This document shows positions 12,432 through 42,924 of a DNA stretch of 64,000 nt, one piece after another. The stretch is from Candidatus Melainabacteria bacterium (lineage in GTDB: Bacteria > Cyanobacteriota > Vampirovibrionia > Obscuribacterales > Obscuribacteraceae). Every line of letters begins with the position of its first letter. Within the stretch, counting starts at the first letter, position 1. Below the pieces are notes generated by a model, which was not told the origin of the DNA, did no database searches, and saw only the letters and a list, made by a program, of their open reading frames with translations. A program made the position numbers and the translations under genes. Where the stretch lies: contig RXJR01000032.1 of the NCBI GenBank assembly GCA_003963305.1, forward strand, positions 186,532 through 250,531, given 5' to 3'.

Positions 12432-12527
12432 CGGGGACGCGTGGGAATCGAACCCACCCAGGACAGCGCTTGTCTGCCCCGCAACGGTTTTGAAGACCGC
12501 ACACCACACCAGCGATGCTCCATCCCC
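12432..12527 (-). tRNA. selC: tRNA-Sec (anticodon TCA)
   Basis: Read on the minus strand, a 96-nt tRNA can be folded. The acceptor is GGGGATG with CGTCCCC (one G-T pair, and a G-G mismatch at position 8). The long D stem is CATCGC with GTGGTG around TGGT. The anticodon stem-loop is GCGGT-CTTCAAA-ACCGT, giving anticodon TCA. A long variable arm has stem GGGCAG with CTGTCC, and the T arm is GTGGG-TTCGATT-CCCAC. The TCA anticodon, extended D stem, long variable arm and length (E. coli selC is 95 nt) identify selenocysteine tRNA. CCA is not encoded. It implies that SelA, SelB and SelD exist elsewhere in the genome. Confidence 0.92.
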
Positions 12528-13015: not shown

Positions 13016-16000
13016 ATGGCTTTAGAGTTATCTGAGCGCGTCCGAACCTTCGGGGTCGGTAGCCCTCGTATCGCCGATCTTCCGGACCTAGCCGAAATCC
13101 AAAAGAGTTCCTTCAAGTGGTTCATTGATGAGGGACTCGGAGAAGAATTAAGAGCCTTCAGTCCCATCAAGGACTACACAGGAAGGCTCGAATTACACTT
13201 CTTGCCGAACTACACGTTCGAAGATCATACAGAGCCAAATAAGCCGAAAACGCCTGAAGACGCTCGGTCTATGGACGCCAGCTTCACCAAGAAGTTGCGT
13301 ATTCAAATGCGTCTGGTCAACCGCGAAATCGGTGAAATCAAAGAGCAAGAGATTTACGTCGGCGACATCCCGATGATGACGGACCGCGGTACGTTCATCA
13401 TCAACGGCGCCGAGCGAGTCATCGTCAGCCAGATCGTCCGAAGCCCCGGCATCTACTACAAACGCGAAGTAGACACCAACGGTAAACGAACATTCAGCGC
13501 CACTTTGATTCCTAACAGAGGCGCCTGGCTCAAGTTCGAAACCGACGTCAATGACGTTATCTACGTCAAAATCGACAAGAACAGAAAACTGCCGGCAACA
13601 ACTCTGTTGCGCGCCCTTGGCTATTCCGACCAGGAAATGGAAGCTCTCTTCCGCCACCGCGACTTCCTCAAGAAGACGCTGGACAAAGACAGCACCAAGT
13701 CACGCGAAGATTCGCTCATCGAAGTTTACAGAAAGCTGCGTCCAGGTGACCCACCGTCAGTTGCTGGCGGACAGAGCATCATTGACAGCCGATTCTTTGA
13801 TGACAAGCGCTACGACCTTGGCAAGGTTGGTCGTTACAAACTCAACAAAAAGCTCAGCCTGAGCGTTTCTGAAGCACAACGCACGCTCACCCGTGAAGAC
13901 ATCGTTGCCGCAGTCGACTACTTAATCGGCTTGCACTACGACGAAGGTCACGTTGATGACATCGACCACCTCGGCAACAGACGTATCCGTTCAGTCGGCG
14001 AATTGTTGCAAAACCAGTTCAGAATTGGTTTGACCCGTTTGGAAAGAATCGTTCGCGAACGTATGACATTGCAAGATGCCGATACGCTCACGCCCGCCAA
14101 CCTGCTCAACACAAAACCGCTGGTCGCTGCAATCCGTGAATTCTTCGGTTCATCGCAGTTGTCACAGTTCATGGACCAGACCAACCCGCTTGCAGAACTG
14201 ACGCACAAACGCCGTCTGTCAGCCCTCGGTCCTGGTGGATTGTCGAGAGAAAGAGCCGGATTCGCGGTTCGCGACATTCACCCCAGCCACTACGGTCGCA
14301 TCTGCCCGGTAGAGACTCCTGAAGGTCCGAACGCAGGTTTGATCGGCTCGCTGGCAACCCACGCTCGTGTTAATGAGTACGGCTTCATTGAGACTCCTTA
14401 TAGACGAGTCGATAACGGCAAGTTGACTGAAGAAGTTCACTACCTTACAGCCGACGAAGAAGACAAATACAGAGTCGCTCCTGGCGACGTGCCTGTGCAC
14501 GACAACGGTGACTTCGTTCACCCGCTCGTACCGGTACGCTACAAAGCTGAGTTTATCGAAACTCCGCCTGAGCAAGTCGACTACGTAGGCGTCAGCCCGA
14601 TTCAGATCGTTTCAGTTGGAACGGCTCTCATTCCTTTCCTCGAGCACGACGACGCTAACCGAGCCCTGATGGGATCGAACATGCAACGTCAGTCAGTGCC
14701 TCTGGTAAGAACTGAAAGAGCGCTCGTCACAACCGGTATCGAAAAGCAGTCAGCTCGCGACTCGGGTATGGTGATCGTTTCTGACCTGGAAGGAAAAGTC
14801 GAGTACGTGACGGCAGCCGCCATTCACGTGCGCACCAAAGACAAGAGACTCGTTAAATACAAACTCTCGAAATTCCAGCGCTCTAACCAGGACACATGCC
14901 TGAATCAGAAGCCAATCGTTCAAGTTGGTGATCATGTCAAACCAGGACAGATCATCGCCGACGGTGCTGCCACCAACTCCGGTGAACTGGCAGTAGGTCG
15001 CAACCTGCTCGTGGCCTTCATGCCATGGGAAGGCTACAACTTCGAAGACGCGATTTTGATCAGTCAACGTCTCGTGTTCGACGAAGTAATGACTTCGATT
15101 CACATTGAAAAACTGGAGATCGACGCTCGTTCAACCAAGTTGGGACCAGAAGAAATCACCCGAGAAGTTCCAAACGTCTCGGAAGAATCACTGCGTCACC
15201 TCGACGAGAACGGCATCGTCAGAGTCGGTTCACGCGTTTATCCAGACGACATTCTGGTCGGTAAGATCACACCGAAAGGTGAATCTGAACATCCGCCAGA
15301 AGAAAAATTGCTCCGCGCCATCTTCGGTGAAAAGGCACGCGACGTCAGAGACAACTCTCTGCGCGTTCCACACGGTGAAGGCGGCCGCGTCGTAGACGTC
15401 AAAGTCTTCGACCGCGAAAAGGGCGATGAACTCCCGCCTGTAGCAAACAAAGTGGTGCGTGTCTACATCGCTCAAAAACGCAAAATCAGCGTTGGCGACA
15501 AAGTAGCAGGACGTCACGGAAACAAAGGTATCGTCGCTCGCATTCTGCCGACCGAAGATATGCCTTTCCTTCCAGACGGCACACCAGTCGACATCGTTCT
15601 CAACCCGCTTGGTGTACCAAGCCGTATGAACGTCGGTCAGACCTTCGAAACATTGCTCGGTTTGGCAGCCATGCTCACCCAGCAACGTTATGAAGTGCCA
15701 CCATTCGACGAAATGTACGCCAAAGAAGCGTCTTCGCATCTCGTTCATGGCGAGATCACCAAAGGCAAAGACATCTCTGGTTTCGATTGGGTCGGTGATA
15801 ACGGCAAAATCACACTCTTTGACGGCAGAAGCGGCGACGCTTTCGACAACCCTGTCACTGTCGGCAAGATCTACATGATGAAGCTGGTCCACCTTGTCGA
15901 CGACAAGATCCACGCCCGTTCGACTGGACCATACAGCTTGGTCACGCAGCAGCCACTGGGCGGAAAGGCTCAGTTCGGCGGTCAGCGTCTGGGAGAAATG

Positions 16001-16489
16001 GAATGCTGGGCGCTGGAAGCGTTCGGTGGAGCCTACTCTCTGCAAGAGATGTTGACTATCAAGTCAGACGACGTAAACGGACGTTCGAGAGCATACGAGT
16101 CGATCGTTAAGGGTGAAAACCTGAAGCGTCCTGGTATTCCGGAATCCTTCAAAGTGCTCGTTCGCGAACTTCAATCAATCGGTCTCGACGTATCCGTCGC
16201 CAAACGCACACGCGAAGGCGGCGAGCTCGAAGTCGACTTGATGACGGAAGTGGAAGAAGCAAGACCACGTGGAATGCGCCGCAGTCCATTTGGCGAAATC
16301 GGCATCGAGTCCGAGCTTGCTGAACTTTCACGTCAACCCGTCGTGCCATCAGCAGCGGTGGCAGTCAGCGAACCTGATGAAGATGTCTTCGCCGGTGGTG
16401 GTGGCGGTGCAGCCGCTGCCGAAGTCGATGACGTCGACCTCGGAGCCGACGAAGAAGATGACGGTGATGACGCAGGCGATGACGTCTAA
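13016..16489 (+). CDS. rpoB: RNA polymerase beta subunit
   Basis: Full-length beta subunit (1157 aa), collinear with the family from [20 protein letters not shown] to the C-terminal SI/clamp region [22 protein letters not shown]. The rifampicin-binding cluster is the sensitive type: Asp387, His397 and Ser402 match E. coli D516, H526 and S531 ([25 protein letters not shown]). After about residue 1105 there is a lineage-specific acidic, Gly-rich tail ending [13 protein letters not shown]. The gene opens the rpoB-rpoC1-rpoC2 operon. Unlike most bacteria, no rplJ/rplL lies upstream; selC and a repeat stand there instead. Confidence 0.99.
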
Positions 16490-16604: not shown

Positions 16605-18404
<1,800 letters not shown>

Positions 18405-18481: not shown

Positions 18482-21400
18482 ATGGTCAGCACGACAGATA
18501 AGAAAAACACTTTAAAGTTCATCAACATGACGATGGACAAGAAGAAACTCGGAAATCTTCTATCAGACATTTACGAAACGTACGGCACAGCCCGCACCGC
18601 GGAATTGGCGAACTCGTTGAAAGACCTCGGATTTCAATATGCCACCAAAGCTGGTGTAACGATTTCGATTGACGACCTCGACGTTCCAGACGCCAAGAAA
18701 GGTTTGATCTCCGCAGCCGAGAAAGAAATCGAAGAAGCACAACGACGCTATGAACGCGGCGAAATTACAGAAGTAGAACGCTACAACAAAGTAATCGACA
18801 CCTGGTCTGCCACCACCGACCAATTGACGAAAGAAGTAGTCGACAACTTCGACAGATTGAACCCGGTATACATGATGGCGTTCTCCGGCGCTAGAGGTAA
18901 CATCTCCCAGGTTCGTCAGCTCGTCGGAATGCGAGGCTTGATGGCTGACTCTCAAGGTCAGATTATCGACTTGCCGATTAAAGCAAACTTCCGCGAAGGC
19001 TTGAACGTAACCGAGTACATCATCTCCAGCTACGGTGCAAGAAAAGGTCTGGTAGATACAGCGCTCAAGACAGCCGACTCAGGATACCTGACACGCCGTC
19101 TCGTCGACGTTGCCCAGGACGTTATCGTTCGCGACGTAGATTGCAAAACCAGCCGCGGTATCTACATGCAACCGATCATGGAAGGCGACAAAGCCATGGT
19201 CAAATTGTCTGAGCGTATCTTCGGTCGTTCAGTATCAGAAGATGTGATTCTCGAAGAAACCGGAGAAGTGCTCGCACGCGCCGGTGATTTGATTGACCGC
19301 GAATTGTCGGCATTGCTCGACCAGAAGAAACTGAAGAGCGTCAAAGTGCGTTCACCACTGACCTGCGACAGCCAATACGGCGTTTGCCAGAAGTGCTACG
19401 GCTGGTCGATGACCAACAACCACCTGGTTGATGTTGGTGAAGCGATCGGTATTATCGCAGCGCAGTCAATCGGTGAACCTGGAACACAGCTGACGATGAG
19501 AACATTCCACACAGGCGGCGCCGTCGCAGGTGGAAGCAGCCGTGCTCAGGTTAAAGCTCCAGCCGCCGGTGAAGTCAGCTACAAGATTCCGAGCCGTTCA
19601 GTAAGAACAGCTTACGGTGACGTTGTAGACCAGACCACCAAAGATGGTGCCATCGTTGTTACTGCCGGATCGAAAGAACACAAACTGCCGATTCCGACAG
19701 GCGCATTGATCCTGCTCAAGGCCGGTTCAACAGTAACTCCTGGTCAAGTTATCGCTGAGTACGACCCACCAGGTTCGAAGAAGAACTTGACTGAGCGCGC
19801 CAGCAAAGACATCACCGCCGACATCTCTGGACGTATCATGTTCAGTGGATTCCAGGCTGACGAAAAACGCGACCGTCAGGGCAACATCTCTCGCACAGCC
19901 AACCGCGCCGGTATCATCTGGGTACTGGAAGGTGACGTATACAACCTGCCTTCAGGCGCTCATGTAGTCGTCAAAGACGGTCAGGACGTAAATCCGAACG
20001 ATGTTCTCGCTGAAATTCAAATCAACACCGAACATGGTGGTGAAGTGCGTTTCGGTCCTGAAATCGAAACCGAAGTCGTTAAGAGCGGCAAGAAGACAGT
20101 CACCAGACTCGTCAAAGGTAAGGAAATCAACGTCATCATCTCGTCGGTCGGCGCCGGTAACGCCAAGCTGGAAACAGCCAAGAACGGCAACACCTGGAGA
20201 GTGGCGAAGAGCAAAGAAGCCTACACAATCAAAGTCGTTAACGACGAAATCGTTGAAAACGGCAAGATTATCGCTGAACTCGTCGACGACGGAACCAACG
20301 TGGTCAACTCCGGCGGAGAAATCATCTATGACGGCGTCGAAATCGACGATCGCCGCGTAGTCACCAAAGCCGGACGCATCCTCTTCGTTCCTGAAGAAGT
20401 TCACTTCATCTCCAAAGACATCAGCTTGAAGATGACTGAATCAGGCGACACTGTCACAGCTGGTCAAGAAATCGTCAAAGACGTTTTTGCCCACATGGAC
20501 GGTATCGTTGAAATCGTTGCCGACAACGACATCATTCACGAAGTAATCGTTCGCCCGGGCGAATTGATCAACATCGGTGATCCTTCAGACGTAAAAGTTC
20601 CGGAAGGTCAAATCGTTGAACCAGGCACCGAGATTCTCGAAGGTCAGAAGTTCAAAGACAGAAAGATCATCAACATTCTCGAAAGAGAAGATGGTACAGC
20701 TCAACTTCTGGTTCGCCCGATTGAAGAATATTGGATCGAGCCTAAAGAAACGAAGTTCAAACACCGCGCCACCGACGACAAGATCAGCTTGAGATCAGTA
20801 ACTCAGTTGCTCTTCAGAGATCGCGAAAAAGTACGTCACTTGCAGGGCGCCCAGCTCACCAGAACATCACTGGTTCTGCAGATGCAAGGTCAATTGCAAG
20901 GACTGAAGGGAACGGTGGAAATCGGCGAAGAAGACTTGAACATCGTTGTTCAAGAAAACATCCTCTTGCGTCGCGACACTGACCTCAACGTCACTCTGCT
21001 ATCCGTTCAGCACGGCGACATCGTCGAAAAGAAATCAGCGGTTGCCACCACGCAAGTGCTGACAAAGACACCTGCACGCGTTCAATTGTCGAAGACAGAC
21101 GAACGAAGAATTCTTCTTATTACAGAAGAACAGCAAGTGCACCACAAGGCCAAAGGCGCCGTCACCGTCAAGGAAGGCGACTTGTTGCGCAACGACGACC
21201 CGATTTCGAAGTCGACGACTGCGGTTCACTCCGGTCAGGTAGTGGCTGTTGATGGAACTGATGTGACTATCCGTAAGGGCAGACCATATCTCATCTCCGG
21301 TAACACACAACTGCAATCTGAAGACGGCGCTCTGGTACAACGCGGCGACCTGCTCGCAACGCTCGTATACGAACGTCAGAAAACCGGAGACATCGTTCAG

Positions 21401-22165
21401 GGTCTTCCGAGAGTTGAAGAACTTCTTGAAGCAAGAAAGCCGAAAGAATGCGCCATTCTCGCTGAAAAAGGCGGTAAAGCCCGCATCATGCGTGAAGATG
21501 ATACGACTCGTCTCTTCATCGTCTACGGTGAAGGCAACGAAGAAGAAATCGTCATTCCTCAAGGCTTGAACGTTATCGTTGAAGAAGGTGAGGCCATCAC
21601 ACCAGGAAAAGCGCTGACAGACGGACCGCCAAACCCACACGATATCGTGCGTTTGATGGGCATCGAAGCAGCTCAGAAATACCTGGTAGACGAAGTACAG
21701 TCGGTATACCGCTCACAAGGTGTAGAAATCGCCGACAAGCACATCGAAGTCATTGTCAGACAGATGACTCGCAAGGTGCGCGTAGACGAGCCAGGCGACA
21801 CGATCATGTTGCCTGGTGAGTTGCTCGAACGCTACTTCATGGATGCCGAAATCGAAAAATCCAGACAGGCAGGAATTAGAGAAGCCACATACACAGCAGT
21901 GTTGCTCGGTATCACTAAAGCCAGCTTGAACACGGAAAGCTTCATCTCTGCCGCATCGTTCCAGGAAACCACAAGAATCCTCACCGAAGCTGCAGTGGAA
22001 GGAAAGAAAGATTGGTTGCGCGGCTTGAAAGAGAACGTCATCATCGGACGTCTCATTCCAGCAGGAACCGGCTTCCAGGGACACACAATCCCAACGGAAG
22101 AAGAGGAAGAAGAAGAGGACATCTACCCGCCAATCGGCGAAGGTTCCTTCAACGTTCCAGCGTAA
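18482..22165 (+). CDS. rpoC2: RNA polymerase beta' C-terminal subunit
   Basis: This is the C-terminal part of beta' (1227 aa). It starts with the region after the split (GTARTAELANSLKDLGFQYA). It carries the second zinc site with Cys221, Cys295, Cys302 and Cys305, then the trigger-loop half MRTFHTGGAV (339-348). The other half, GLPRVEELLEARKPK, only resumes near residue 974. The roughly 600 residues between hold repeated beta-barrel modules, as in the cyanobacterial SI3 insertion; E. coli SI3 is only about 190. An in-frame ATG at residue 16 is an alternative start. The gene ends the operon and is followed by a strong terminator. Confidence 0.98.
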   Translation: MVSTTDKKNTLKFINMTMDKKKLGNLLSDIYETYGTARTAELANSLKDLGFQYATKAGVTISIDDLDVPDAKKGLISAAEKEIEEAQRRYERGEITEVERYNKVIDTWSATTDQLTKEVVDNFDRLNPVYMMAFSGARGNISQVRQLVGMRGLMADSQGQIIDLPIKANFREGLNVTEYIISSYGARKGLVDTALKTADSGYLTRRLVDVAQDVIVRDVDCKTSRGIYMQPIMEGDKAMVKLSERIFGRSVSEDVILEETGEVLARAGDLIDRELSALLDQKKLKSVKVRSPLTCDSQYGVCQKCYGWSMTNNHLVDVGEAIGIIAAQSIGEPGTQLTMRTFHTGGAVAGGSSRAQVKAPAAGEVSYKIPSRSVRTAYGDVVDQTTKDGAIVVTAGSKEHKLPIPTGALILLKAGSTVTPGQVIAEYDPPGSKKNLTERASKDITADISGRIMFSGFQADEKRDRQGNISRTANRAGIIWVLEGDVYNLPSGAHVVVKDGQDVNPNDVLAEIQINTEHGGEVRFGPEIETEVVKSGKKTVTRLVKGKEINVIISSVGAGNAKLETAKNGNTWRVAKSKEAYTIKVVNDEIVENGKIIAELVDDGTNVVNSGGEIIYDGVEIDDRRVVTKAGRILFVPEEVHFISKDISLKMTESGDTVTAGQEIVKDVFAHMDGIVEIVADNDIIHEVIVRPGELINIGDPSDVKVPEGQIVEPGTEILEGQKFKDRKIINILEREDGTAQLLVRPIEEYWIEPKETKFKHRATDDKISLRSVTQLLFRDREKVRHLQGAQLTRTSLVLQMQGQLQGLKGTVEIGEEDLNIVVQENILLRRDTDLNVTLLSVQHGDIVEKKSAVATTQVLTKTPARVQLSKTDERRILLITEEQQVHHKAKGAVTVKEGDLLRNDDPISKSTTAVHSGQVVAVDGTDVTIRKGRPYLISGNTQLQSEDGALVQRGDLLATLVYERQKTGDIVQGLPRVEELLEARKPKECAILAEKGGKARIMREDDTTRLFIVYGEGNEEEIVIPQGLNVIVEEGEAITPGKALTDGPPNPHDIVRLMGIEAAQKYLVDEVQSVYRSQGVEIADKHIEVIVRQMTRKVRVDEPGDTIMLPGELLERYFMDAEIEKSRQAGIREATYTAVLLGITKASLNTESFISAASFQETTRILTEAAVEGKKDWLRGLKENVIIGRLIPAGTGFQGHTIPTEEEEEEEDIYPPIGEGSFNVPA

Positions 22166-33043: not shown

Positions 33044-33682
33044 TTGCCCGCACTAGACTATAAAGACAAAAACTTCAGCCCGATTCGCAGATTAACGCAA
33101 ATCGGCACAGCCCGATACCTTCTCTATCCGATTTACTACTGGCGCAACCGCTTGAAAGTGACGGGAAGGGAGAATGTGCCTAAGAACCAGCCGGTTTTGA
33201 TTGTGGCGAATCACCTGTCTTACTGGGACCCTCCCATTCTGGTAATTGCCGTTGACCGACCCATGGGATTCATCGCTAAAGAAGAACTTTTCACAAACCC
33301 GAAAGTATCGGCCTTGATCGAGTTCTATTCAGCCATTTCAGTAAATCGAGATAAGCCGGAAAAACGCACAATCAAATCAGTGCGCAACATCTTCAAGGCT
33401 GGTTGGTGCGTGTCTATGTTCATTGAGGGTACGCGACCGAAAACACCCGGCTACCTCGGTCCACCGCATCTAGGCGCTGCCTATTTCGCAAAATCAAACA
33501 ACGTTCAGATTCTTCCGGTTGGACTAATTGGCACCGCCGAAAAGGGCGAGAAAGCGTTTGCGCATATCGGAAAGCTGATTCAACCGAGCGATGATTTTGA
33601 GAAGACAACGTGGGAAGTAATGGAATCGCTGTCACAACTGACGGGATTCAAAATACGCGAAGATCGAAAACTGGCCGAGTAA
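33044..33682 (+). CDS. plsC: 1-acyl-sn-glycerol-3-phosphate acyltransferase
   Basis: 212 aa with the acyltransferase motifs NHLSYWD (HxxxxD; His57, Asp62), FIEGTRP (126-132, the EGTR block) and a following PVGLIGT block. It probably makes phosphatidic acid from lysophosphatidic acid in membrane lipid synthesis; closely related enzymes acylate other lipids. It starts with TTG at 33044, with AGGAA just upstream. It is convergent with the SbcC-like gene. Confidence 0.9.
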   Translation: MPALDYKDKNFSPIRRLTQIGTARYLLYPIYYWRNRLKVTGRENVPKNQPVLIVANHLSYWDPPILVIAVDRPMGFIAKEELFTNPKVSALIEFYSAISVNRDKPEKRTIKSVRNIFKAGWCVSMFIEGTRPKTPGYLGPPHLGAAYFAKSNNVQILPVGLIGTAEKGEKAFAHIGKLIQPSDDFEKTTWEVMESLSQLTGFKIREDRKLAE

Positions 33683-33707: not shown

Positions 33708-36470
33708 CTAGCCGCGCAAAGGTGTGCGGCGCGCGAAATCGATTTTTGCGGTCTGCTCAGGAGTGAGCTGGCTGATCAGCCAGTGGTGTCGCTGCTGGTG
33801 ACAGCTGAAAATAACCACCTGGTGATTCGCCACCAGCACATCGAGCAAAAACTGCATGACGCGCAAGAAGCGCTCATCGTCTGCTTCGCTGAAAGGTTCG
33901 TCAAGCACGATCGGCAGCGGATTACCCTTTGACAGAAAGCGAGACACGACCATACGTGCCAACCAGTGCAACTGCTCTTTGGTGCCAGTTGAAAGTTGAG
34001 TGCTTATGTTCGAGGCATTCACTTCCTGCCCGTCGCTTTTCTTGCGAGCGGTAATTCGCAAGTCAGAGTCAAAATGAAGATGATCGAAGTCGAGTCCGAT
34101 GTTGGTGATCATCTCTTTCGCAATCTCATTCAGCTTGACTGACCAATCTTCGTAGGTCTCGGCAGAAAGTCTCTGCAGCGTATCGCGCGCAAGTTCAATG
34201 GCAGTTTTGGCACGGCGAACATTGTTCAACTCCCGCGATACCTGCTCGAGTTCTTCCACCGCGGCCAGATAATTCTGATCGTGATTCATCGATGCAGTGC
34301 GCACCGCGAGAGTCAACTCATCCCGCTCACGGCGCAGGTCATCCAGATACATCTTGCTGGAATAGCCACCACTCAAGTTCATACGTCTTGGTGGTGTCAT
34401 GGGCGGCGCCATCTCAGCGATGTTCGGATACTGTTCAACCAATTCCTGCATGCGAGCAAAAATCTCCATGCGCATGGTCTCCAGACGCTCCACTTGCGGC
34501 GGCAGCTCATCTGGCGTGAAGCCAGACGACATATCTGTTTCCATCTTTCTCAGCTCAGTATGCATCACCTGCCAGCGATGGAATGAAGCAAGCTTGGAGA
34601 AAAACTGCTGATGAACATCTGCAATATTATCTGAATCTTCAAGGTGAGCGTTGACAAAAATCTCTCGCAGCTGATCGTCAATGTTTTGAATCTCGCTGGC
34701 GAGAAACTCGAGTTGCTGTTTACTCTGTTTGACTGCGCTGTATGTCGAACTGATATGGCGCTGCTCTTCGATGTACTTGCCGATTTGATCCGCAAGTTCA
34801 GTGGCGCTGTCTGAGTTGATTTCCCAGGCCTGACGTCCTGCTTTAACGAAGAAAGGTTCGAGGTCTGCTTTAACTTGAGCCAGCGTTGTTTCTCTATCAA
34901 TAATTAGATTGTCCAGACTGGCTCGCGCTTCCGCCTCTTTGTTCACCGGCATCGGTGCGCCTGTCAACTGTGCCACAAGATGCTTGCCGCTGGCCAAACC
35001 GATCTTCTGAGCGAGCGCGTCCAACCGGCCTTCCAGACCACGTATTTTGGTACTCAGCTCATCGACCTGCTTGCGGCATTTTTCTATTTCTGCTTCCGCT
35101 AGCTCGACTTCTTTCTTTTTAGAGGCGCCGGGAAGAACAAACATCACTTTCTTTGTTTTCTTTTGCTCTTCCACGTCGAAAATAAACATTCGATTCTTGT
35201 CGATTTTAGACTCGGCGTCTGCAATTGCTTCCTTGAAAGAATCGATTAAAGCCACATATGAACGAGCGTTTTCATGCTCCATCTCATCAAGAGATTGTTG
35301 AGCCGGAGCCCCAGGCTTAGCGCCAGATCCAACATCAGGATCCCGGTCACCGCGCCGCTGGCGCAGGTCGTGCAGTTCTGCCTGAAGGTTGTAGAAAGTC
35401 ACCGCAAGCACACCGATGCGCTTGCCTTCGTCGGCACTGAACTCACTCAGACCGTCGAATCTATCTTGAGCGTGTTTTTCGTGCGACTCATATTCGCGCA
35501 GCTGTGGTGCCATCTCTTCCAGATAGCGATCGTAATCTTCCTGACGAGATTGACGACGGGTCCACAATTCTTCCACTCGTTTTACGGAGTCAATCGGAAA
35601 CCCATCCATATTGCCGAGCGAACTCATTTCCTGACGCAACTCTGAAAGCTTCGCCAGAGTTGTTTGGGCCTGAATCAGCCTGTTATCAGTGTCCGCAGCC
35701 TCCAGACAGAGTTCGAAATACTCATTGGCGCCAGCCTGTTCGGTATCATCGACGATATCACCTTCAAGTTTGCCTATCTTGCTGATATTGACTCCGATCT
35801 GATCCTTGTCTGATTCCAGTTTTTTGATCTTGTCTGACAGCTCGTAATATTGCCCTTCCAGATCACGCATAACCACTTCCACTCGATTTCGCTTACCCTT
35901 GTGTGGGAAATGATGCAGGGCGTCTTCGAGTATTTCGATGGCGTGGCTGGCATTGCTGGCCGGCTGTGAACTGTCTGCGATTCCTTGAAACAGTGAAGTC
36001 AAATCGCTGTCGCCGCTAAAGGCGTGCTCATCGAGCTCTCTTTGCCCTACGAAGCAAGTGCTGCGAAACATTTCGCGTGTCATTCCGGTCAATTTGAGAC
36101 CGACTTGATCCTCGCCGTTCGGACCACGGAATCGCTTCGTCACATCTTTGTTTTTCTGATCGCGGTCGACAACCTGCACTGCGCCGTCGCTAAAATCTCG
36201 AATAACTTTCAACCGGGTGCCATTGGTGGTGATATCGATACTGGCGATATATGGCATTTTGGAAGCAGCACTCGGTCTTCGCGCTTCACGCTCTGAGGGT
36301 TGCTCGCCGCTCTCTGGAAAATCATAAAGAATCGCCCAGACGGCACTGGCTATGGTGGATTTACCGTACTCGTTGCTTTCCACAACGAGATTGAGTTTAT
36401 TGTCTTTAAATTCGATCTTTTCACCGGAAATATTTCCATATCCGGCAAAGTCAATCCTCTCAATCCACAT
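33708..36470 (-). CDS. SbcC/Rad50-like ATPase, YhaN type
   Basis: 920 aa with an SMC-like plan: N-terminal ATPase half, long coiled coils (about residues 190-780), C-terminal ATPase half. The C-terminal half has the signature LSTGTKEQLHWLARM (from 826), Walker B IVLDEPF (854-860), the D-loop SEADDERF and SCHQ. The P loop is ESNEYGKST: Lys37 is present, but the first Gly of GxxxxGKS/T is Glu31. No zinc-hook CxxC is found, as in YhaN proteins. It overlaps the phosphoesterase-like gene by 11 nt, so the two form a pair. DNA-end or DNA-structure binding is inferred. Confidence 0.88.
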   Translation of the reverse strand: MWIERIDFAGYGNISGEKIEFKDNKLNLVVESNEYGKSTIASAVWAILYDFPESGEQPSEREARRPSAASKMPYIASIDITTNGTRLKVIRDFSDGAVQVVDRDQKNKDVTKRFRGPNGEDQVGLKLTGMTREMFRSTCFVGQRELDEHAFSGDSDLTSLFQGIADSSQPASNASHAIEILEDALHHFPHKGKRNRVEVVMRDLEGQYYELSDKIKKLESDKDQIGVNISKIGKLEGDIVDDTEQAGANEYFELCLEAADTDNRLIQAQTTLAKLSELRQEMSSLGNMDGFPIDSVKRVEELWTRRQSRQEDYDRYLEEMAPQLREYESHEKHAQDRFDGLSEFSADEGKRIGVLAVTFYNLQAELHDLRQRRGDRDPDVGSGAKPGAPAQQSLDEMEHENARSYVALIDSFKEAIADAESKIDKNRMFIFDVEEQKKTKKVMFVLPGASKKKEVELAEAEIEKCRKQVDELSTKIRGLEGRLDALAQKIGLASGKHLVAQLTGAPMPVNKEAEARASLDNLIIDRETTLAQVKADLEPFFVKAGRQAWEINSDSATELADQIGKYIEEQRHISSTYSAVKQSKQQLEFLASEIQNIDDQLREIFVNAHLEDSDNIADVHQQFFSKLASFHRWQVMHTELRKMETDMSSGFTPDELPPQVERLETMRMEIFARMQELVEQYPNIAEMAPPMTPPRRMNLSGGYSSKMYLDDLRRERDELTLAVRTASMNHDQNYLAAVEELEQVSRELNNVRRAKTAIELARDTLQRLSAETYEDWSVKLNEIAKEMITNIGLDFDHLHFDSDLRITARKKSDGQEVNASNISTQLSTGTKEQLHWLARMVVSRFLSKGNPLPIVLDEPFSEADDERFLRVMQFLLDVLVANHQVVIFSCHQQRHHWLISQLTPEQTAKIDFARRTPLRG

Positions 36471-37713
36471 CGCGAACAGTCACCTTCTTTCGTCTGAGCG
36501 CATCCAAACCATAGTACAAAGCATCTTCAATCAAATTCGCATCATTTTGATTGGTATCATATTCGCCACCAACATCTTCAGCATTTTTCTTCATAGCCAA
36601 CAGAGCTTCAACAAATTTTGCCTCAGTAGTTCGCTCATCGAACGTTTCGGAAAGATAATCAGGTCTCGTATAGTCCATAACCGCTACGTTGTAATAACGA
36701 TACTGCAACTCGTCGATGATTTCAGCCGGATTAGTGTCAATTCTATAATTGCCTTCCAGTTGCAGAAAGACAAGATCGCTTTCGATGCGGCCGCCATGGT
36801 CGGCGATACTCATTGTGATCTCGTGCAGCATTTCCTCACCAGTCAGACCGGATATATCGGCAGTCACCATAACCATCCGGCGGCGATCCAGCTCTAACGG
36901 TTCAATGTTACATTGCCAGGCGCCAAATTCGTTCTTTTGTATCGTTCCAAGTAAGGCAAAACGCGGACCGAGCTCATCAAAGCCTCTGCCAGCTATCGAT
37001 CCCGAGTATGCGCCCAGAATATCCCCGGCCCCTGAAAGGACCTCGGTATAGTCTTGATAATGTCCGAGAGCAGCATAGGTAAACTGGTTCTCCTCCAGCT
37101 GCTCAGCCGTAAACGGGCTGTAAGGTGCTGCCTCGTTCGCCCTGTCGACTCCGGTGTAACCCTCGATAGAGCCGCATAACAAAAGAATATTTATCTCTGC
37201 GTCCAGGTCTCGGGGAATCAGGTTAGCCAAGGGGTTCTCGGCTTGAGGAGCGGAATCGAGCAGCGCTCGCCCGGTAAAGGCGACATTCGGATAAGACGGG
37301 TGCCTGACCGTGGAAAAGTCGCCGGTTTTGAAGATATGAACGTTATCAGGCCAGGTTGGCAAGCCGAAGAGATGCAAAATATCATTGTTGTAGAAAGACT
37401 CCGGTCCATAACAGTCTTTGTCGCCCGGGGTAATCAGGACCGGCACATTTTCTAATTCAGCACAGCCATTGATGATTCGAGACAATGTTGCGCCCCTGAT
37501 CGTCTCGTTGTGCCACAAATCACCGGGAATCAGAACCGCGTCAACGCGCTCAGCTCGCGCCACTTCAAGCGCCAGCATAAAAACTTCCAATATTTCACGC
37601 CTTCGCTGCCGTCGTTCGCTTAGTGAGAGCGGCAATTTGAGAAAACTCAAACGAGAATCCAAATGCACATCTGAGAATTGCAGAAATTTAAATTGTCCGC
37701 TCTCTTTGTCCAC
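36460..37713 (-). CDS. SbcD/Mre11-like protein with degenerate active site
   Basis: 417 aa with the calcineurin-like phosphoesterase plan of SbcD/YhaO. Of the five motifs only the first is intact: DVH (Asp15, His17). GDxxD is GDLWH (64-68), GNHD is GDKD (97-100), the lone His before the core end is Cys180 (LLCGS), and GHxH is GHYQ (217-220). The catalytic His and at least two metal ligands are therefore lost, so nuclease activity is doubtful; a structural or regulatory partner of the downstream ATPase is more likely. The start is GTG at 37713 with AGGAAG five bases upstream. It follows the thiolase gene by 48 bp. Confidence 0.85.
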   Translation of the reverse strand: MDKESGQFKFLQFSDVHLDSRLSFLKLPLSLSERRQRRREILEVFMLALEVARAERVDAVLIPGDLWHNETIRGATLSRIINGCAELENVPVLITPGDKDCYGPESFYNNDILHLFGLPTWPDNVHIFKTGDFSTVRHPSYPNVAFTGRALLDSAPQAENPLANLIPRDLDAEINILLLCGSIEGYTGVDRANEAAPYSPFTAEQLEENQFTYAALGHYQDYTEVLSGAGDILGAYSGSIAGRGFDELGPRFALLGTIQKNEFGAWQCNIEPLELDRRRMVMVTADISGLTGEEMLHEITMSIADHGGRIESDLVFLQLEGNYRIDTNPAEIIDELQYRYYNVAVMDYTRPDYLSETFDERTTEAKFVEALLAMKKNAEDVGGEYDTNQNDANLIEDALYYGLDALRRKKVTVRDVD

Positions 37714-37761: not shown

Positions 37762-38970
37762 CTAATTTTCGAGAGCTACTACAGTGGCAATACCCTGTCC
37801 AACTCCCACACACATGGTAGCCAAGCCGTAACCTGCTCCCCGGCGTTTCATCTCATGGATGAGAGTGCCAAGAATGCGGGAACCGCTGCTCCCCAGTGGA
37901 TGCCCGAGGGCGATGGCGCCGCCGTTTACGTTCAACTTCTTCGTATCTATGTTCAGCTCACGCACGCAAGCCAGAACTTGCACGGCAAATGCTTCGTTCA
38001 ACTCGACCAGATCGATGTCCGACATCTTCAAACCGGCACGCTCTAAAGCCTTACGAGACGCGGGAATCGGTCCCGTACCCATGATCGATGGATCGACACC
38101 GGCCACGGCTGAACTGACAAATCGCGCGATAGGAATCAGCCCCAACTCGTTGCACATTTCTCTCGACATAACCAGGAGCGCACTGGCTCCGTCATTAATG
38201 CCCGATGAGTTCCCGGCAGTGACAGAGCCGTTTTCACGGAAAGCAGGTTTGATTTTTTTCAAATCTTCCAGCTTAGTTTCAGGGCGAGGCTGTTCGTCTA
38301 CGGAAAATACTTCAGGCTCCGTACTGCCTTTCTTTTTCGGCAAATGCACCGGTATTATTTCATCATCAAATTTGCCTGTTCTGGCTGCTTCAGCATATTT
38401 GTGCTGGCTCTCCAGGGCGAACTGATCTTGATCTTCACGCGAAATCTTATAGCGCTCCGCAACGTTTTCTGCAGTTTCCCCCATCGAATCAGGTGGATAC
38501 ATATCTGCCAGTTTTTTGTTTACGAAGCGCCATCCCAGTGTTGTATCGACCAGCTTCTGATTGCCTCGGGCAAATGCCGTAGTATTCTTCAGAACTACGT
38601 ACGGTGCGCGAGTCATTGACTCCACGCCACCGGCGATATAGATGTGACCATTGCCTGTCTGGATAGCCCGGCAGGCATCATTGACAGCCATCAATCCCGA
38701 ACCGCACAACCGATTAACCGTAGCCCCGGGCACCGCTGCCGGCAAGCCTGCCAGCAAGGCCGCCATGCGGGCCACGTTGCGGTTATCTTCACCAGACTGA
38801 TTGGCACAACCGAAGATCACATCTTCAATCTGTCCGGGATTGATGAAGCTGCGCTTCAACAATTCCTCAATTACTATCGCCGCCAGGTCATCGGGCCGAA
38901 TCTCCTTAAGCGCTCCGGCATAGCGGCCGATTGGCGTGCGTACTGCGTCTACGATAACAGCTTCTCTCAT
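37762..38970 (-). CDS. Thiolase (acetyl-CoA acyltransferase, PcaF/PaaJ-like)
   Basis: A complete 402-aa thiolase with nucleophile Cys89 (NRLCGSG), His357 ([11 protein letters not shown]) and Cys387 (MCVGVGQG). The wording [25 protein letters not shown] is close to 3-oxoadipyl-CoA thiolases of aromatic degradation, but no other gene of that pathway is near, so a general acetyl-CoA C-acyltransferase role is equally likely. GAGG lies five bases before its ATG. It sits 13 bp behind the LRV gene and 48 bp before the SbcD-like gene; the functional link to either is unclear. Confidence 0.93.
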
Positions 38971-38983
38971 GGGAACCTCAATT

Positions 38984-40951
38984 TCAATTAAATTGGCGCC
39001 AACCAGGCACCGCTATCCAAACTTCACTGTCGTCACTCAAAGCGGTCAGCACCGCCGCTGGTGCAGCTGGATTAGCCGCCACAGCTCGTCTGATGTCAGG
39101 GTTTTTATCCCTGGAGAACTGTTCCAGCAAATCTGCCGGCGCACTGGCGTTACCGGCGACTGCTGCTCTAACCAGCTCGTCATCGCCTGCCAGCTTCTTC
39201 AAAAGAGATGCCGGGGAATTCTTGTTAGCGGCGACGGCAGTTTTGACATCGAGACTGGCATCACCGCCAAGTGATTCCAGCACCGCGGCCGATGCTAAAG
39301 GATTGCTCGCTACAGCTACACGAACGTTGGGATCTCGGTCAGCAGAAAGAGCCTTCAAGGCGCTGGACGGCACGCGATTGGAGGCTGCCACCAGGAGTCT
39401 GAGTGCGGCATCTTTAGACTGCGCCAACTGATCGAAAACCGCATCACCAGGTCTCTGTACGCGATTGAGTAAACGCTGCAAGACCACCGAATCAGCATTT
39501 CCGGCAAGCGAGATCAAGGCAGCTTCAGGCGTTGCTGGGTTGGAAGCCAGAGCTCGCAACACCATAACAGAGGCATCGTTTACCAACCCGGAGAGCACAG
39601 CCGCATCAACATTCGGATTTGTGGCGACTGCCTGTCTCACATCTTCATTACCATCGCTCGATAGTTTTTTGAAGACCTCGTTACGCCAGGAATTGCCGGG
39701 GGCAGTACCCTTAAATGAGTTGGTCGCCAGCGCCAGCCGCACCATGAGCGAGCTGTCTGCCATCAATTTCTTTGCATCGGATTCGGGCAAGTAAGGATTC
39801 TGAGCCAGCGTGTGCCTGACTAGAGGCGACTCACTGCCCGAAAGAACGGCAAACATGTCAGAAGACAGGCTGGGTCTTGCGGCAATGATCTGGTCGATGG
39901 CAACCGAATTCACCTTATTGAGCCGCTTGATGATATCAGGGACGGTGCTAGGATTACGAGCTACAGCTTCACGCACCCGTTCACTGGAGTCGTTAGCCAA
40001 TTTTTCGACTACGGCAGCAGGCAGCGAATGATTGGTGGCCAGTGCCCAGCGGACACGCATCTGTTTGTCGGCAGCCAATTGGTCGATCAGTGTCGGATCT
40101 TCCTTTATAGATTTGGCATTCTGTGCCACTTCCAGACGAACTGCCCAACTGGTATCGCCAGCCAGTTTCTTCAATACCGCAATTGGTGTCGATGGATTGG
40201 CCGCAACGCCTTCTCGCACCACTTCGTTGTTGTCTTTGGAAAGCAGTTCAAGAGCTGAAGCCGGCGTATTGGCATTCTGCGCCACGAAGGAACGCACACC
40301 GAGATCGCCGTCTTGCGCCAGTACAGCTAGAGCCGCCGGTGACATAGTGCTCTGGCGCGCGAGAAATGTTCTCACCAGGCGATCACCGACGCGCGAGAGT
40401 CTGACAACTTGCTCGGGCGGCAAATGCGGATTGCGCGCTAAAGAAAGCAAAAGGTACTCAGTTTGAATGGGTCCCTGAGCCAGTTTCGACAACACATCAG
40501 GAGTTGTTTTCGGATTGGCAGCCAGCGTTTCGATAATTTTCGGCTGACGGGAATTAGCAAGGTAAGAAAGGGTAGCAGGACCAACAAAACTGGGATTAAG
40601 TAACACGGCCTCGCTGACAATATCGTTTGAATCTCTTGCCAGCCTGTCTTTATCGGCATCTGGAGTATTGGAATTAGCAGCAACGGCGCCACGAATTTCA
40701 TCAGATGGATCATTTGCCAACTTGCTCAATATCGCGGCGGGACAATGTGCATTCTGCGCCACGGAGAGACGAACCAACATGGCCGGACCGTAAAATTCAA
40801 TTGTCGGCGCAGCGGCGTCACGAGTCTGTTCAAGCCCGGAAGTGGCTGCTAACAAAGTGTTGGATGCCATCGCGGCCGGCGGCATCATCACAAGCGTAGA
40901 AGCCATCAAACTTTTCAAAAATTGCGCGTTAGCAGCTCGCAAAATTGACAT
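38984..40951 (-). CDS. Exported LRV-repeat protein, about 22 repeats
   Basis: 655 aa built almost wholly of about 22 copies of a 24-residue repeat with consensus VRxAVAxNPxTPxxVLxxLAxD, the leucine-rich-repeat-variant (LRV) pattern that folds as a right-handed helical solenoid. An N-terminal hydrophobic stretch ending near AAMAS indicates export, unusual for LRV proteins; the Cys cluster for an Fe-S centre known from Azotobacter LRV is missing. ATG 40951 is chosen since GGGAG is eight bases upstream. The last repeat breaks off after SEVWIAV. A protein-binding role in the envelope is inferred. Confidence 0.8.
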
Positions 40952-41061
40952 TACATTCACTCCCTTGAACAAAAAACCGTGGAGCTTGATATCTCAACGG
41001 ATCACATCATTTTAACGGGTCTAAGATTTCGATGCAGCAGAAAACTACAAAATTCCAATCG

Positions 41062-42924
41062 TCAAGAAGCCTGGTGAATCTCTCGAATCAATCCCAGTAG
41101 AACATCGCGATTCAATTCCTGACTTACGTATTCGATGTACTTAACTTGCCAGTTTTCAATGTCCTTGATAATTGTGGTCAGCGATGTTTGCGCCGAACGA
41201 GCTGCAGCCAGGTCAACGCCCACCTCGCCACCGGCGCCCATGGTGAATATTCTTGCCCGCCCGGAATAACCGATGCTGTCTCGTAAGGCGAGGCGCAGAA
41301 ACGCCAGGCTGCGCTCCGCTGTAATTTTGGCACTGACTCCTCCAACAAGCTGCTGGAACTTGTCGAGAGGTCCGTGCAGATCCACTTTCGGAATTTTCAC
41401 GAGTTCATGGTGCAAAAGCAAATTAATGGCTGTCGTCAATTGAGAAGTTGTGACGTCACCGAGATAGCGAATACTCGTCGCCAGCGAGGTGATGCCATCC
41501 ATGGCAGCCCAGACACGCTGAGCCCGCTCCATCTCTTCCGCCGATACGGGTCTCTTCTCTTGCGGATCTTCAAGCAACGTCTCAAGCAATCCGTTGTCAT
41601 CGGGTACCTTTTCGAGTACGGAGTTGATACCTTTAGGCAACTTTTTCAAAACAGTATCAGTATTATCTTTCGCCAGAGCAGCATCGAGCAAAAGCTTATC
41701 CAGCGGTTTCGAAACCTTACAGTTATCCCTGGCGAGGTCGGCTGGAGGAGTGCGTTGAATGAAGACGAAGATTCCATCTTTCCACGATGAAGCAAATTCG
41801 ATCACAGCAGAATTGCCTGCAACCTTGCCGACTTTAGCGTGAGTCAGGCGACCAACCTCGAACTGGGCGCGGAACTGCGAATCTTTGTATTCAACTGAAA
41901 GCACACCTGATTCACGGTTGGTGGCGATGTTTTGCAAAAGGTTGGAAGGGTCGGTCGTACCAAGGTGACCGACCAGCGATTGCACTTGAGTCTCCTCGCC
42001 GGATGTCTTCACGAGCTTGACTTTGTCTGAATCAGAAGTCTGTCCGTAAAACGCCTGGTCTTGCAGTGCGATCTCCAGCTGACGAGTGTTGATAAAACCC
42101 TTCTTCACAGCCAGTGGTCCGAGAGTAACCCGCTCTTTAATCGGCATACTGTGCAACTCGAAAAGCAATTCATCAACCTGATCTTGAGTGACTAATTTCG
42201 ATGCGAGCAGCAGATCTTTCAATGTGAAAGGAGTCTGGTTGCGGAAACAGTTGACGAGGAAAGGCACCTTATTGAAGATGGGATAAATGGCGCGGCTCTG
42301 TTCAAGCCCCTTCAGCTCTTCCAAAACGTCATCGGCGGTCATCCGCCCTTGCGAGGTGATGCGATGCGTGATTGTGCTGAGCGGCGTAAAATTGTCGACG
42401 GCAGCAATCACTGCATTTCGGCGACGCGGTTGGTCCATTCCAGCTTTCATTTTGATGCCCAGGTGCGTCAACACCGGCACGGTCGACATCAGGACCTGCT
42501 GCGCCAGGTCAGTGCTCTCTTCCGCCACTTCGCCGGAAGACCCTATTACAGACTGTACATGCCTTGCAAGAGGCGCGGAATAGTCGAAAAGCTCAGCATG
42601 GTTTTCAAATATATGAAAGCTCAAAGAGCCCATCAAAGTATCTCTGACAACGGCTACAGCTTTGTCCTTTTTGACGAAAACCAGGGCTCCCTGAACTTCA
42701 AGCAGAGTGCCGGCCAGCCCGCCAGCCTCAATCAAAAGTTCGGCCGGGAAGAGGTAACCGCATGTCGTGGCGTCAATCAAGACCGCGTCAAACAGATGCT
42801 TACCGGCTGAAAGACCGTTCAATTCAGCCAGCAGATCAGGACCATATTTGAGAACTACGACGTTCTCCTGAGACATCATGCGACTCAGACGCTCTGTAAT
42901 GATCTCATTTTGTTCAACGGCCAT
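41062..42924 (-). CDS. DUF4388-domain protein
   Basis: 620 aa, soluble. The middle part (about residues 310-400) has the DUF4388 pattern: LVGHLGTTDPSNLLQNIATNRESGVL-type strand and helix order followed by VGRLTHAKVGKVAGNSAVIEFASSW. Before it lies a segment like MshEN domains (LGPLAVKKGFINTRQLEIAL). DUF4388 proteins are often found in gliding or type IV-pilus regulation. There is no catalytic motif. Its ATG faces the TPR-metzincin gene divergently, 200 bp away. Confidence 0.75.
   Translation of the reverse strand: MAVEQNEIITERLSRMMSQENVVVLKYGPDLLAELNGLSAGKHLFDAVLIDATTCGYLFPAELLIEAGGLAGTLLEVQGALVFVKKDKAVAVVRDTLMGSLSFHIFENHAELFDYSAPLARHVQSVIGSSGEVAEESTDLAQQVLMSTVPVLTHLGIKMKAGMDQPRRRNAVIAAVDNFTPLSTITHRITSQGRMTADDVLEELKGLEQSRAIYPIFNKVPFLVNCFRNQTPFTLKDLLLASKLVTQDQVDELLFELHSMPIKERVTLGPLAVKKGFINTRQLEIALQDQAFYGQTSDSDKVKLVKTSGEETQVQSLVGHLGTTDPSNLLQNIATNRESGVLSVEYKDSQFRAQFEVGRLTHAKVGKVAGNSAVIEFASSWKDGIFVFIQRTPPADLARDNCKVSKPLDKLLLDAALAKDNTDTVLKKLPKGINSVLEKVPDDNGLLETLLEDPQEKRPVSAEEMERAQRVWAAMDGITSLATSIRYLGDVTTSQLTTAINLLLHHELVKIPKVDLHGPLDKFQQLVGGVSAKITAERSLAFLRLALRDSIGYSGRARIFTMGAGGEVGVDLAAARSAQTSLTTIIKDIENWQVKYIEYVSQELNRDVLLGLIREIHQAS

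What the first reader, a model, noticed from the sequence alone, without database searches (positions are those of the whole stretch)
33708..37713. SbcC/Rad50-like ATPase paired with a catalytically degenerate Mre11-like protein
The SbcD-like partner keeps only the first of five phosphoesterase motifs; GDxxD, GNHD, the lone His and GHxH read GDLWH, GDKD, Cys180 and GHYQ. The overlapping ATPase keeps signature and Walker B motifs but has Glu31 in place of the first P-loop Gly. An ATP-driven clamp without a nuclease would be an unusual member of the YhaN/YhaO group, perhaps for DNA holding, signalling or defence.
Basis: partly seen in the sequence, partly recalled or inferred. Interest (0 to 1): 0.72.

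Follow-up and report, generated by a model that had tools for sequence, protein, structure and literature searches.

The report
Mre11–Rad50-like pair that lost its nuclease
In one order of non-photosynthetic relatives of cyanobacteria, a two-protein machine related to the DNA-break enzyme Mre11–Rad50 has kept both genes in place but lost its DNA-cutting residues (and in some lineages its ATP-burning ones too) while natural selection still guards the proteins, so it probably now works without cutting DNA.

Summary
Window 36460-37713(-) encodes a Mre11-fold protein and 33708-36470(-) an overlapping Rad50/YhaN-like ATPase. The Mre11-like protein has lost the catalytic His (K99) and several metal ligands. 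GDLWH is not a lost motif: solved Mre11/SbcD read GDLFH/GDLLH there. D15, H17, D65 and H218 remain.

Homologous pairs lie at the same locus across Obscuribacterales. Four genera keep the complete nuclease site. Eleven, including this one, have degenerate sites but full ATPase motifs. Five have lost both sets yet keep two full-length ORFs. Three genomes keep only a degenerate Rad50-like ORF; two lost both genes. The outgroup is intact, so this is loss.

Glu31 is ancestral to the order's pairs: it also occurs beside intact nucleases. It is not decay of this copy.

Selection persists (omega 0.07-0.14 in this genus). One doubly dead Rad50-like pair is 85% identical with silent sites randomised. 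In nuclease-dead genera the old site is no more conserved than average, while the C-terminal helices and ATPase head stay conserved. A separate intact SbcD exists.

Best reading: a maintained pseudonuclease that serves as structural partner of an ATPase clamp. There is no sign of defence. Biochemical function is untested.

The parts
36460..37713 (-). Mre11-like (YhaO/SbcD-type) pseudonuclease, 417 aa, GTG start
   Evidence: Pfam Metallophos; AF2 model pLDDT 86.9, best PDB matches all Mre11
33708..36470 (-). Rad50/YhaN-like ATPase, 920 aa, long coiled coil, no apex transmembrane pair and no CxxC zinc hook
   Evidence: Pfam AAA_27
36460..36470 (-). 11-nt overlap of the two genes, kept in most relatives
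37663..37671 (-). Motif I D15-x-H17, intact
37510..37524 (-). Motif II GDLWH (D65, H68): same form as GDLFH/GDLLH of solved Mre11/SbcD, not lost
   Evidence: alignments
37414..37425 (-). Motif III GDKD: N84->D98, catalytic H85->K99
37174..37176 (-). C180 in place of ligand H173
37054..37065 (-). Motif V GHYQ: H218 kept, H208->Q220
36496..36528 (-). EDALYYGLDAL, C-terminal helix conserved in live and dead members; sits where Mre11 has its Rad50-binding helices (role inferred)
36354..36380 (-). Walker A ESNEYGKST with E31 for the first Gly; Lys and Ser/Thr kept
33972..33995 (-). ABC signature LSTGTKEQ
33897..33917 (-). Walker B LPIVLDE
33798..33800 (-). H-loop His891
35121..35150 (-). Approximate coiled-coil apex (KVMFVLPGAS), where relatives carry two hydrophobic transmembrane-like segments that are absent here
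37762..38970 (-). Thiolase, conserved upstream neighbour
38984..40972 (-). LRV/HEAT-repeat protein, conserved upstream neighbour
41062..42924 (-). DUF4388 protein, conserved upstream neighbour
33044..33682 (+). Acyltransferase (PlsC-type), convergent conserved neighbour

Best explanation
This is a vertically inherited YhaO/YhaN-type Mre11-Rad50-like complex of Obscuribacterales in which the Mre11-like subunit has become a pseudonuclease. It is kept as the structural partner of the Rad50-like ATPase, probably binding it through its two C-terminal helices. SHOWN from sequence: loss of the catalytic His and of a metal ligand; persistence of the fold, the gene pairing and the locus; purifying selection; an ATPase with its Lys, Q-loop, signature, Walker B and H-loop; a separate SbcD with intact motifs; loss of the apex transmembrane hairpin in this genus. 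INFERRED: the ATPase still binds and hydrolyses ATP despite Glu31; two subunits of each protein form an ATP-gated clamp around or on DNA, as in Mre11-Rad50; the complex holds, senses or tethers rather than cuts, cutting being left to canonical SbcCD.
For: Motif table: 4 genera intact, 11 nuclease-degenerate with full ATPase motifs, 5 degenerate in both, no case of a dead ATPase beside an intact nuclease. Outgroup f9 intact in both, so the direction is loss. omega 0.07-0.14 for the Mre11-like gene within the genus; dozens of stops expected without selection, none observed. The eight site residues are 100% conserved in intact members but 0.34 in nuclease-dead ones (mean column 0.43), while the C-terminal helix (0.74) and residues 347-368 (0.68) match intact members (0.74, 0.67); ATPase head segments stay at 0.6-0.68. 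AF2 model of P0001: best PDB matches all Mre11. Synteny DUF4388-LRV-thiolase-pair across two families. SbcD in 50 of 53 genomes; own SbcD has intact motifs.
Against: No biochemistry; clamp formation and DNA binding are inferred from relatives. Glu at the first Walker A position could impair nucleotide binding. Three related genomes lost the Mre11-like gene and two lost both, so the pair is dispensable on long time scales. Several of the window's metal ligands survive or are replaced by residues that can ligate (D98, C180).
Confidence: 0.68

Rival explanations
1. Slow decay: the pair is a relic being eroded step by step (nuclease, then ATPase, then the genes), with only residual function in this lineage.
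For: The order shows every stage, ending with solo dead ATPase (G023, G027, G032) and loss of both genes (G013, G014).
Against: Strong purifying selection in live and dead members; doubly dead Rad50-like proteins of G025 and G028 are 85% identical with four-fold sites at 28% identity; intact ORFs and pairing nearly everywhere.
Confidence: 0.15
2. The site has been remodelled, not lost: D15, H17, D65, D98, C180 and H218 form a different metal site (e.g. Zn or Fe) with another phosphoesterase activity.
For: These six residues are identical in all three genomes of the genus; Asp and Cys can ligate metals.
Against: The position of H208 already varies within the genus (Q/Q/H), H85 is K/R, and across nuclease-dead genera the site columns drift at about background rate, with no shared alternative set.
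Confidence: 0.11
3. A Lamassu-like anti-phage system: the Rad50-like ATPase is an LmuB sensor.
For: PADLOC LmuB profile hits P0002 at 1e-18.
Against: LmuB scores are weak and generic across relatives and an ordinary YhaN; no LmuA or other effector among ten neighbours; the locus is a fixed, vertically inherited core region, unlike a defence island; the partner is Mre11-like, absent from Lamassu.
Confidence: 0.03
4. Assembly or sequencing artefact in a metagenome-assembled genome.
For: All genomes of the order examined by name are MAGs.
Against: Independent genomes of the genus share the same residues; conserved synteny and codon-level purifying selection.
Confidence: 0.02

Closest known systems
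YhaO/YhaN pair (Bacillus type; Pfam AAA_27 ATPase plus Metallophos)
   Same: Adjacent Mre11-like and Rad50-like genes; AAA_27 N-terminal domain; coiled coil whose apex carries two hydrophobic segments in most members, as in the ordinary YhaN-like pair of another family of the class
   Different: In the window the nuclease site is degenerate, Walker A starts with Glu, and the apex transmembrane-like pair is gone. YhaN/YhaO itself is barely characterised in the held literature.
SbcCD / Mre11-Rad50
   Same: Mre11 fold, Rad50-type head motifs, gene pairing
   Different: Catalytic residues lost; no CxxC zinc hook; far below the SbcD model cut-off (14 of 78 bits); the genome has a separate SbcD
Lamassu (LmuA-LmuC-LmuB)
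   Same: Rad50-like ATPase acting without an Mre11 nuclease; distant LmuB similarity. LmuB commonly carries Walker B Glu->Gln (PMC10586767)
   Different: No effector, core locus, Mre11-like partner kept, Walker B Glu intact here

Membership tests
Mre11/SbcD nuclease | Mre11 fold | tested here: met
   AF2 models of P0001 and of intact homologue G051; best PDB matches are Mre11
Mre11/SbcD nuclease | Complete two-metal site and catalytic His (D8, H10, D49, N84, H85, H173, H206, H208) | tested here: not met
   Window: D,H,D,D,K,C,H,Q; intact relatives G005, G021, G022, G050-52 and outgroup f9 meet it
Mre11/SbcD nuclease | SbcD family model TIGR00619 over its cut-off | tested here: not met
   14.2 bits against 77.65
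Mre11/SbcD nuclease | Nuclease activity | not testable with these tools
   needs purified protein
YhaN/YhaO-type pair | AAA_27 domain over gathering score | tested here: met
   36.9 bits against 22
YhaN/YhaO-type pair | Adjacent Mre11-like gene | tested here: met
YhaN/YhaO-type pair | Hydrophobic (transmembrane-like) pair at the coiled-coil apex, as in relatives and an ordinary YhaN-like protein | tested here: not met
   maximum hydropathy 0.57 in the window against 2-3 in most relatives
Rad50/ABC-type ATPase | Walker A Lys, Q-loop, signature, Walker B, H-loop | tested here: met
Rad50/ABC-type ATPase | First Walker A Gly (or Ala) | tested here: not met
   E31 here; E, A or Q in relatives with otherwise intact ATPase; G in outgroup f9
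Rad50/ABC-type ATPase | Zinc hook CxxC | tested here: not met
   no CxxC in P0002
Lamassu | LmuA effector next to LmuB | tested here: not met
   ten neighbours scanned, no match

The most novel reading that the evidence does not exclude
In at least five Obscuribacterales genera (e.g. L038/L040, L043-45, L033/L035) both partners are pseudoenzymes, a dead Mre11 with a dead Rad50, yet they are kept as a pair by purifying selection. The most conserved part has moved from the ATPase head to the coiled coil. A Mre11-Rad50-like complex would then work as a purely structural, mostly membrane-anchored scaffold with neither nuclease nor ATPase, and the window's pair is an earlier stage of that conversion.
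Probability: 0.45. Interest if true: 0.77.

Novelty: new variant of a known kind. Interest (0 to 1): 0.62.

Why it matters
Mre11-Rad50 has nuclease-independent roles (tethering, signalling) that are hard to separate from cutting. Here nature offers a graded series in one order of bacteria, with the locus held constant: intact pair, nuclease-dead pair, doubly dead pair, solo dead Rad50-like protein, no pair. It lets one ask directly what the complex is selected for when it can no longer cut, and then when it can no longer burn ATP. I found no paper describing it in the library held.

Tried and rejected
IQ-TREE on the concatenated pair timed out; FastTree and a PMSF RpoB tree were used instead. 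I tried to show several independent nuclease losses: the RpoB tree does not reject one clade of all nuclease-dead lineages (p-AU 0.40) and only leans against one clade of ATPase-dead lineages (p 0.08). So the number of first-loss events is not claimed, although later residue-by-residue losses clearly differ between lineages. Lamassu membership rejected. The first AF2 job used an alignment headed by an intact relative (G051), not P0001; it served as a control. Literature searches for YhaN/YhaO function gave only passing mentions.

Full report
WHAT IS THERE. On the minus strand, 36460-37713 (417 aa, GTG start) and 33708-36470 (920 aa) overlap by 11 nt. The first matches Metallophos and weakly Mre11 models; the second matches AAA_27 and weakly SbcC_Walker_B. 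An AlphaFold2 model of the first (pLDDT 86.9, pTM 0.81, 24-sequence alignment) has Mre11 structures as its best PDB matches, led by P. furiosus Mre11.

CORRECTION OF THE MOTIF COUNT. Solved Mre11/SbcD proteins read GDLFH (P. furiosus) or GDLLH (T. maritima) at motif II, as the alignments show, so GDLWH is a normal Mre11 motif II. In P. furiosus numbering (my knowledge of the family), the window has D8, H10, D49 and H206 intact, N84->D, H173->C, H208->Q and the catalytic H85->K. The site is therefore partly, not almost wholly, lost; loss of H85 and H208 still makes normal Mre11 catalysis unlikely.

DISTRIBUTION. The organism belongs to Obscuribacterales (named relatives; G037 corresponds to SZAS-4, G033 to Obscuribacter phosphatis). 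46 of 53 genomes of the order encode the Mre11-like protein, always next to the Rad50-like gene, almost always overlapping, with open frames (G040's Mre11-like gene is split into two frames). DUF4388 - LRV repeat - thiolase - Mre11-like - Rad50-like, with convergent acyltransferase and TPR genes, is conserved through family f1; f2 keeps the thiolase and LRV neighbours. The canonical rpoB lies some 12-45 kb away in about twenty genomes. The locus is ancestral and vertically inherited, not a mobile or defence island.

A SERIES OF LOSSES. One table of eight nuclease positions plus H52, and eleven ATPase positions, sorts the genera. Intact nuclease and ATPase motifs: g3, g11, g12, g24. Nuclease degenerate, ATPase motifs full: g1 (the window), g2, g5, g8, g9, g10, g16, g19, g21, g22, g23. 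Both degenerate: g4, g15, g17, g20, g25 (G031 in g17 only partly, with Walker A Lys->Arg). g21 has lost only the catalytic His (H85->R). G036, in the window's genus, still has the H208 ligand that the window lacks. Outgroup family f9 has every nuclease residue and a normal Gly in Walker A, so the changes are losses within this order. No genome has a dead ATPase beside an intact nuclease. At the syntenic site G027, G032 and G023 have a Rad50-like ORF without any Mre11-like gene, and that ORF has lost its ATPase motifs; G013 and G014 have neither gene.

GLU31. All ATPase-competent pairs of the order have Glu, Ala or Gln at the first Walker A Gly, including those with an intact nuclease. It is an ancestral feature of this family in the order, not decay of the window copy. 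Whether it slows ATP binding is unknown.

SELECTION. For the Mre11-like gene omega is 0.07-0.08 (G000-G037) and 0.11-0.14 (G000-G036); for the doubly dead G002-G003 it is 0.15-0.19 for both genes. Where dS is saturated, I compared four-fold sites with protein identity: in doubly dead G025-G028 the Rad50-like proteins are 85% identical while four-fold sites are 28% identical, and a no-selection simulation gives about 43 in-frame stops where none is seen. These genes are maintained.

WHAT SELECTION GUARDS. In intact members the eight site residues are 100% conserved. In nuclease-dead, ATPase-live members they fall to 0.34, no better than the mean column (0.43), while the C-terminal helix with EDALYYGLDAL stays at 0.74 and residues 347-368 at 0.68, as in intact members; ATPase head segments stay at 0.6-0.68. 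In doubly dead members the head segments fall below the coiled coil: in G025/G028 coiled-coil residues 161-200 are identical while the former P-loop region is 75%; against G026 the figures are 0.82 and 0.17. In the model the conserved C-terminal motif lies in the last helix pair, where Mre11 has its Rad50-binding helices; that role is inferred by position.

ARCHITECTURE. In most of the order, in f9 and in an ordinary YhaN-like pair, the coiled-coil apex has two strongly hydrophobic segments (mean hydropathy mostly 2-3), which suggests a membrane-anchored hairpin. The window's genus and g4/g20 have lost it. There is no CxxC zinc hook. The window's ATPase is therefore predicted to be soluble with an unusual apex.

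CANONICAL NUCLEASE ELSEWHERE. The genome has a separate SbcD (C24) with intact motifs and an SbcC-type ATPase (C32:97110); SbcD is found in 50 of 53 genomes. End processing need not depend on the window pair.

MECHANISM. Most likely the pair is an ATP-driven clamp or sensor in which the Mre11-like subunit provides dimerisation, DNA contact and coupling but does not cut. Shown: degenerate site, maintained fold, pairing, selection, ATPase motifs. Inferred: complex formation, DNA binding, ATP hydrolysis. Rivals (slow decay, remodelled metal site, Lamassu-like defence, artefact) are weighed in their field.

LIMITS. Trees agree on which lineages are intact, but deep nodes are weak, and one single origin of nuclease loss is not rejected (p-AU 0.40), so I do not claim several independent first losses. 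All named genomes are metagenome-assembled. No function has been measured. Open-access literature searches found nothing on this pair.

Noticed in passing
window 13016-16489 (canonical rpoB, followed by split rpoC1 16605-18404 and rpoC2 18482-22165) and L187:4507-8457 (G000:C4): Nearly every genome of family f1 has a second, divergent full-length RpoB-type protein (about 1300 aa, Rpb2 domains 2, 3, 45, 6 and 7). In the window's genome it is an orphan, as only one rpoC2 is found; outgroup f9 has one rpoB only.
   Followed up: partly
L216, L220, L221 (G032, G027, G023): Solo Rad50-like ORFs at the syntenic site (two of 964-970 aa, one of 764 aa), ATPase motifs lost; the two long ones have no Pfam match.
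   Followed up: partly
L046-L050: Separate canonical YhaO-like proteins with complete motifs in G021, G025, G027, G028 and G048, coexisting with the degenerate pair in some genomes.
   Followed up: no
window approx. 35541-35723 (P0002 residues about 250-310): A coiled-coil segment (EYFELCLEAADTDNRL...FPIDSVKRVEELWTRR) recognisable even in doubly dead relatives; possible binding site of an unknown partner.
   Followed up: no
window 12432-12527 (-): ARAGORN calls a selenocysteine tRNA (anticodon tca).
   Followed up: no
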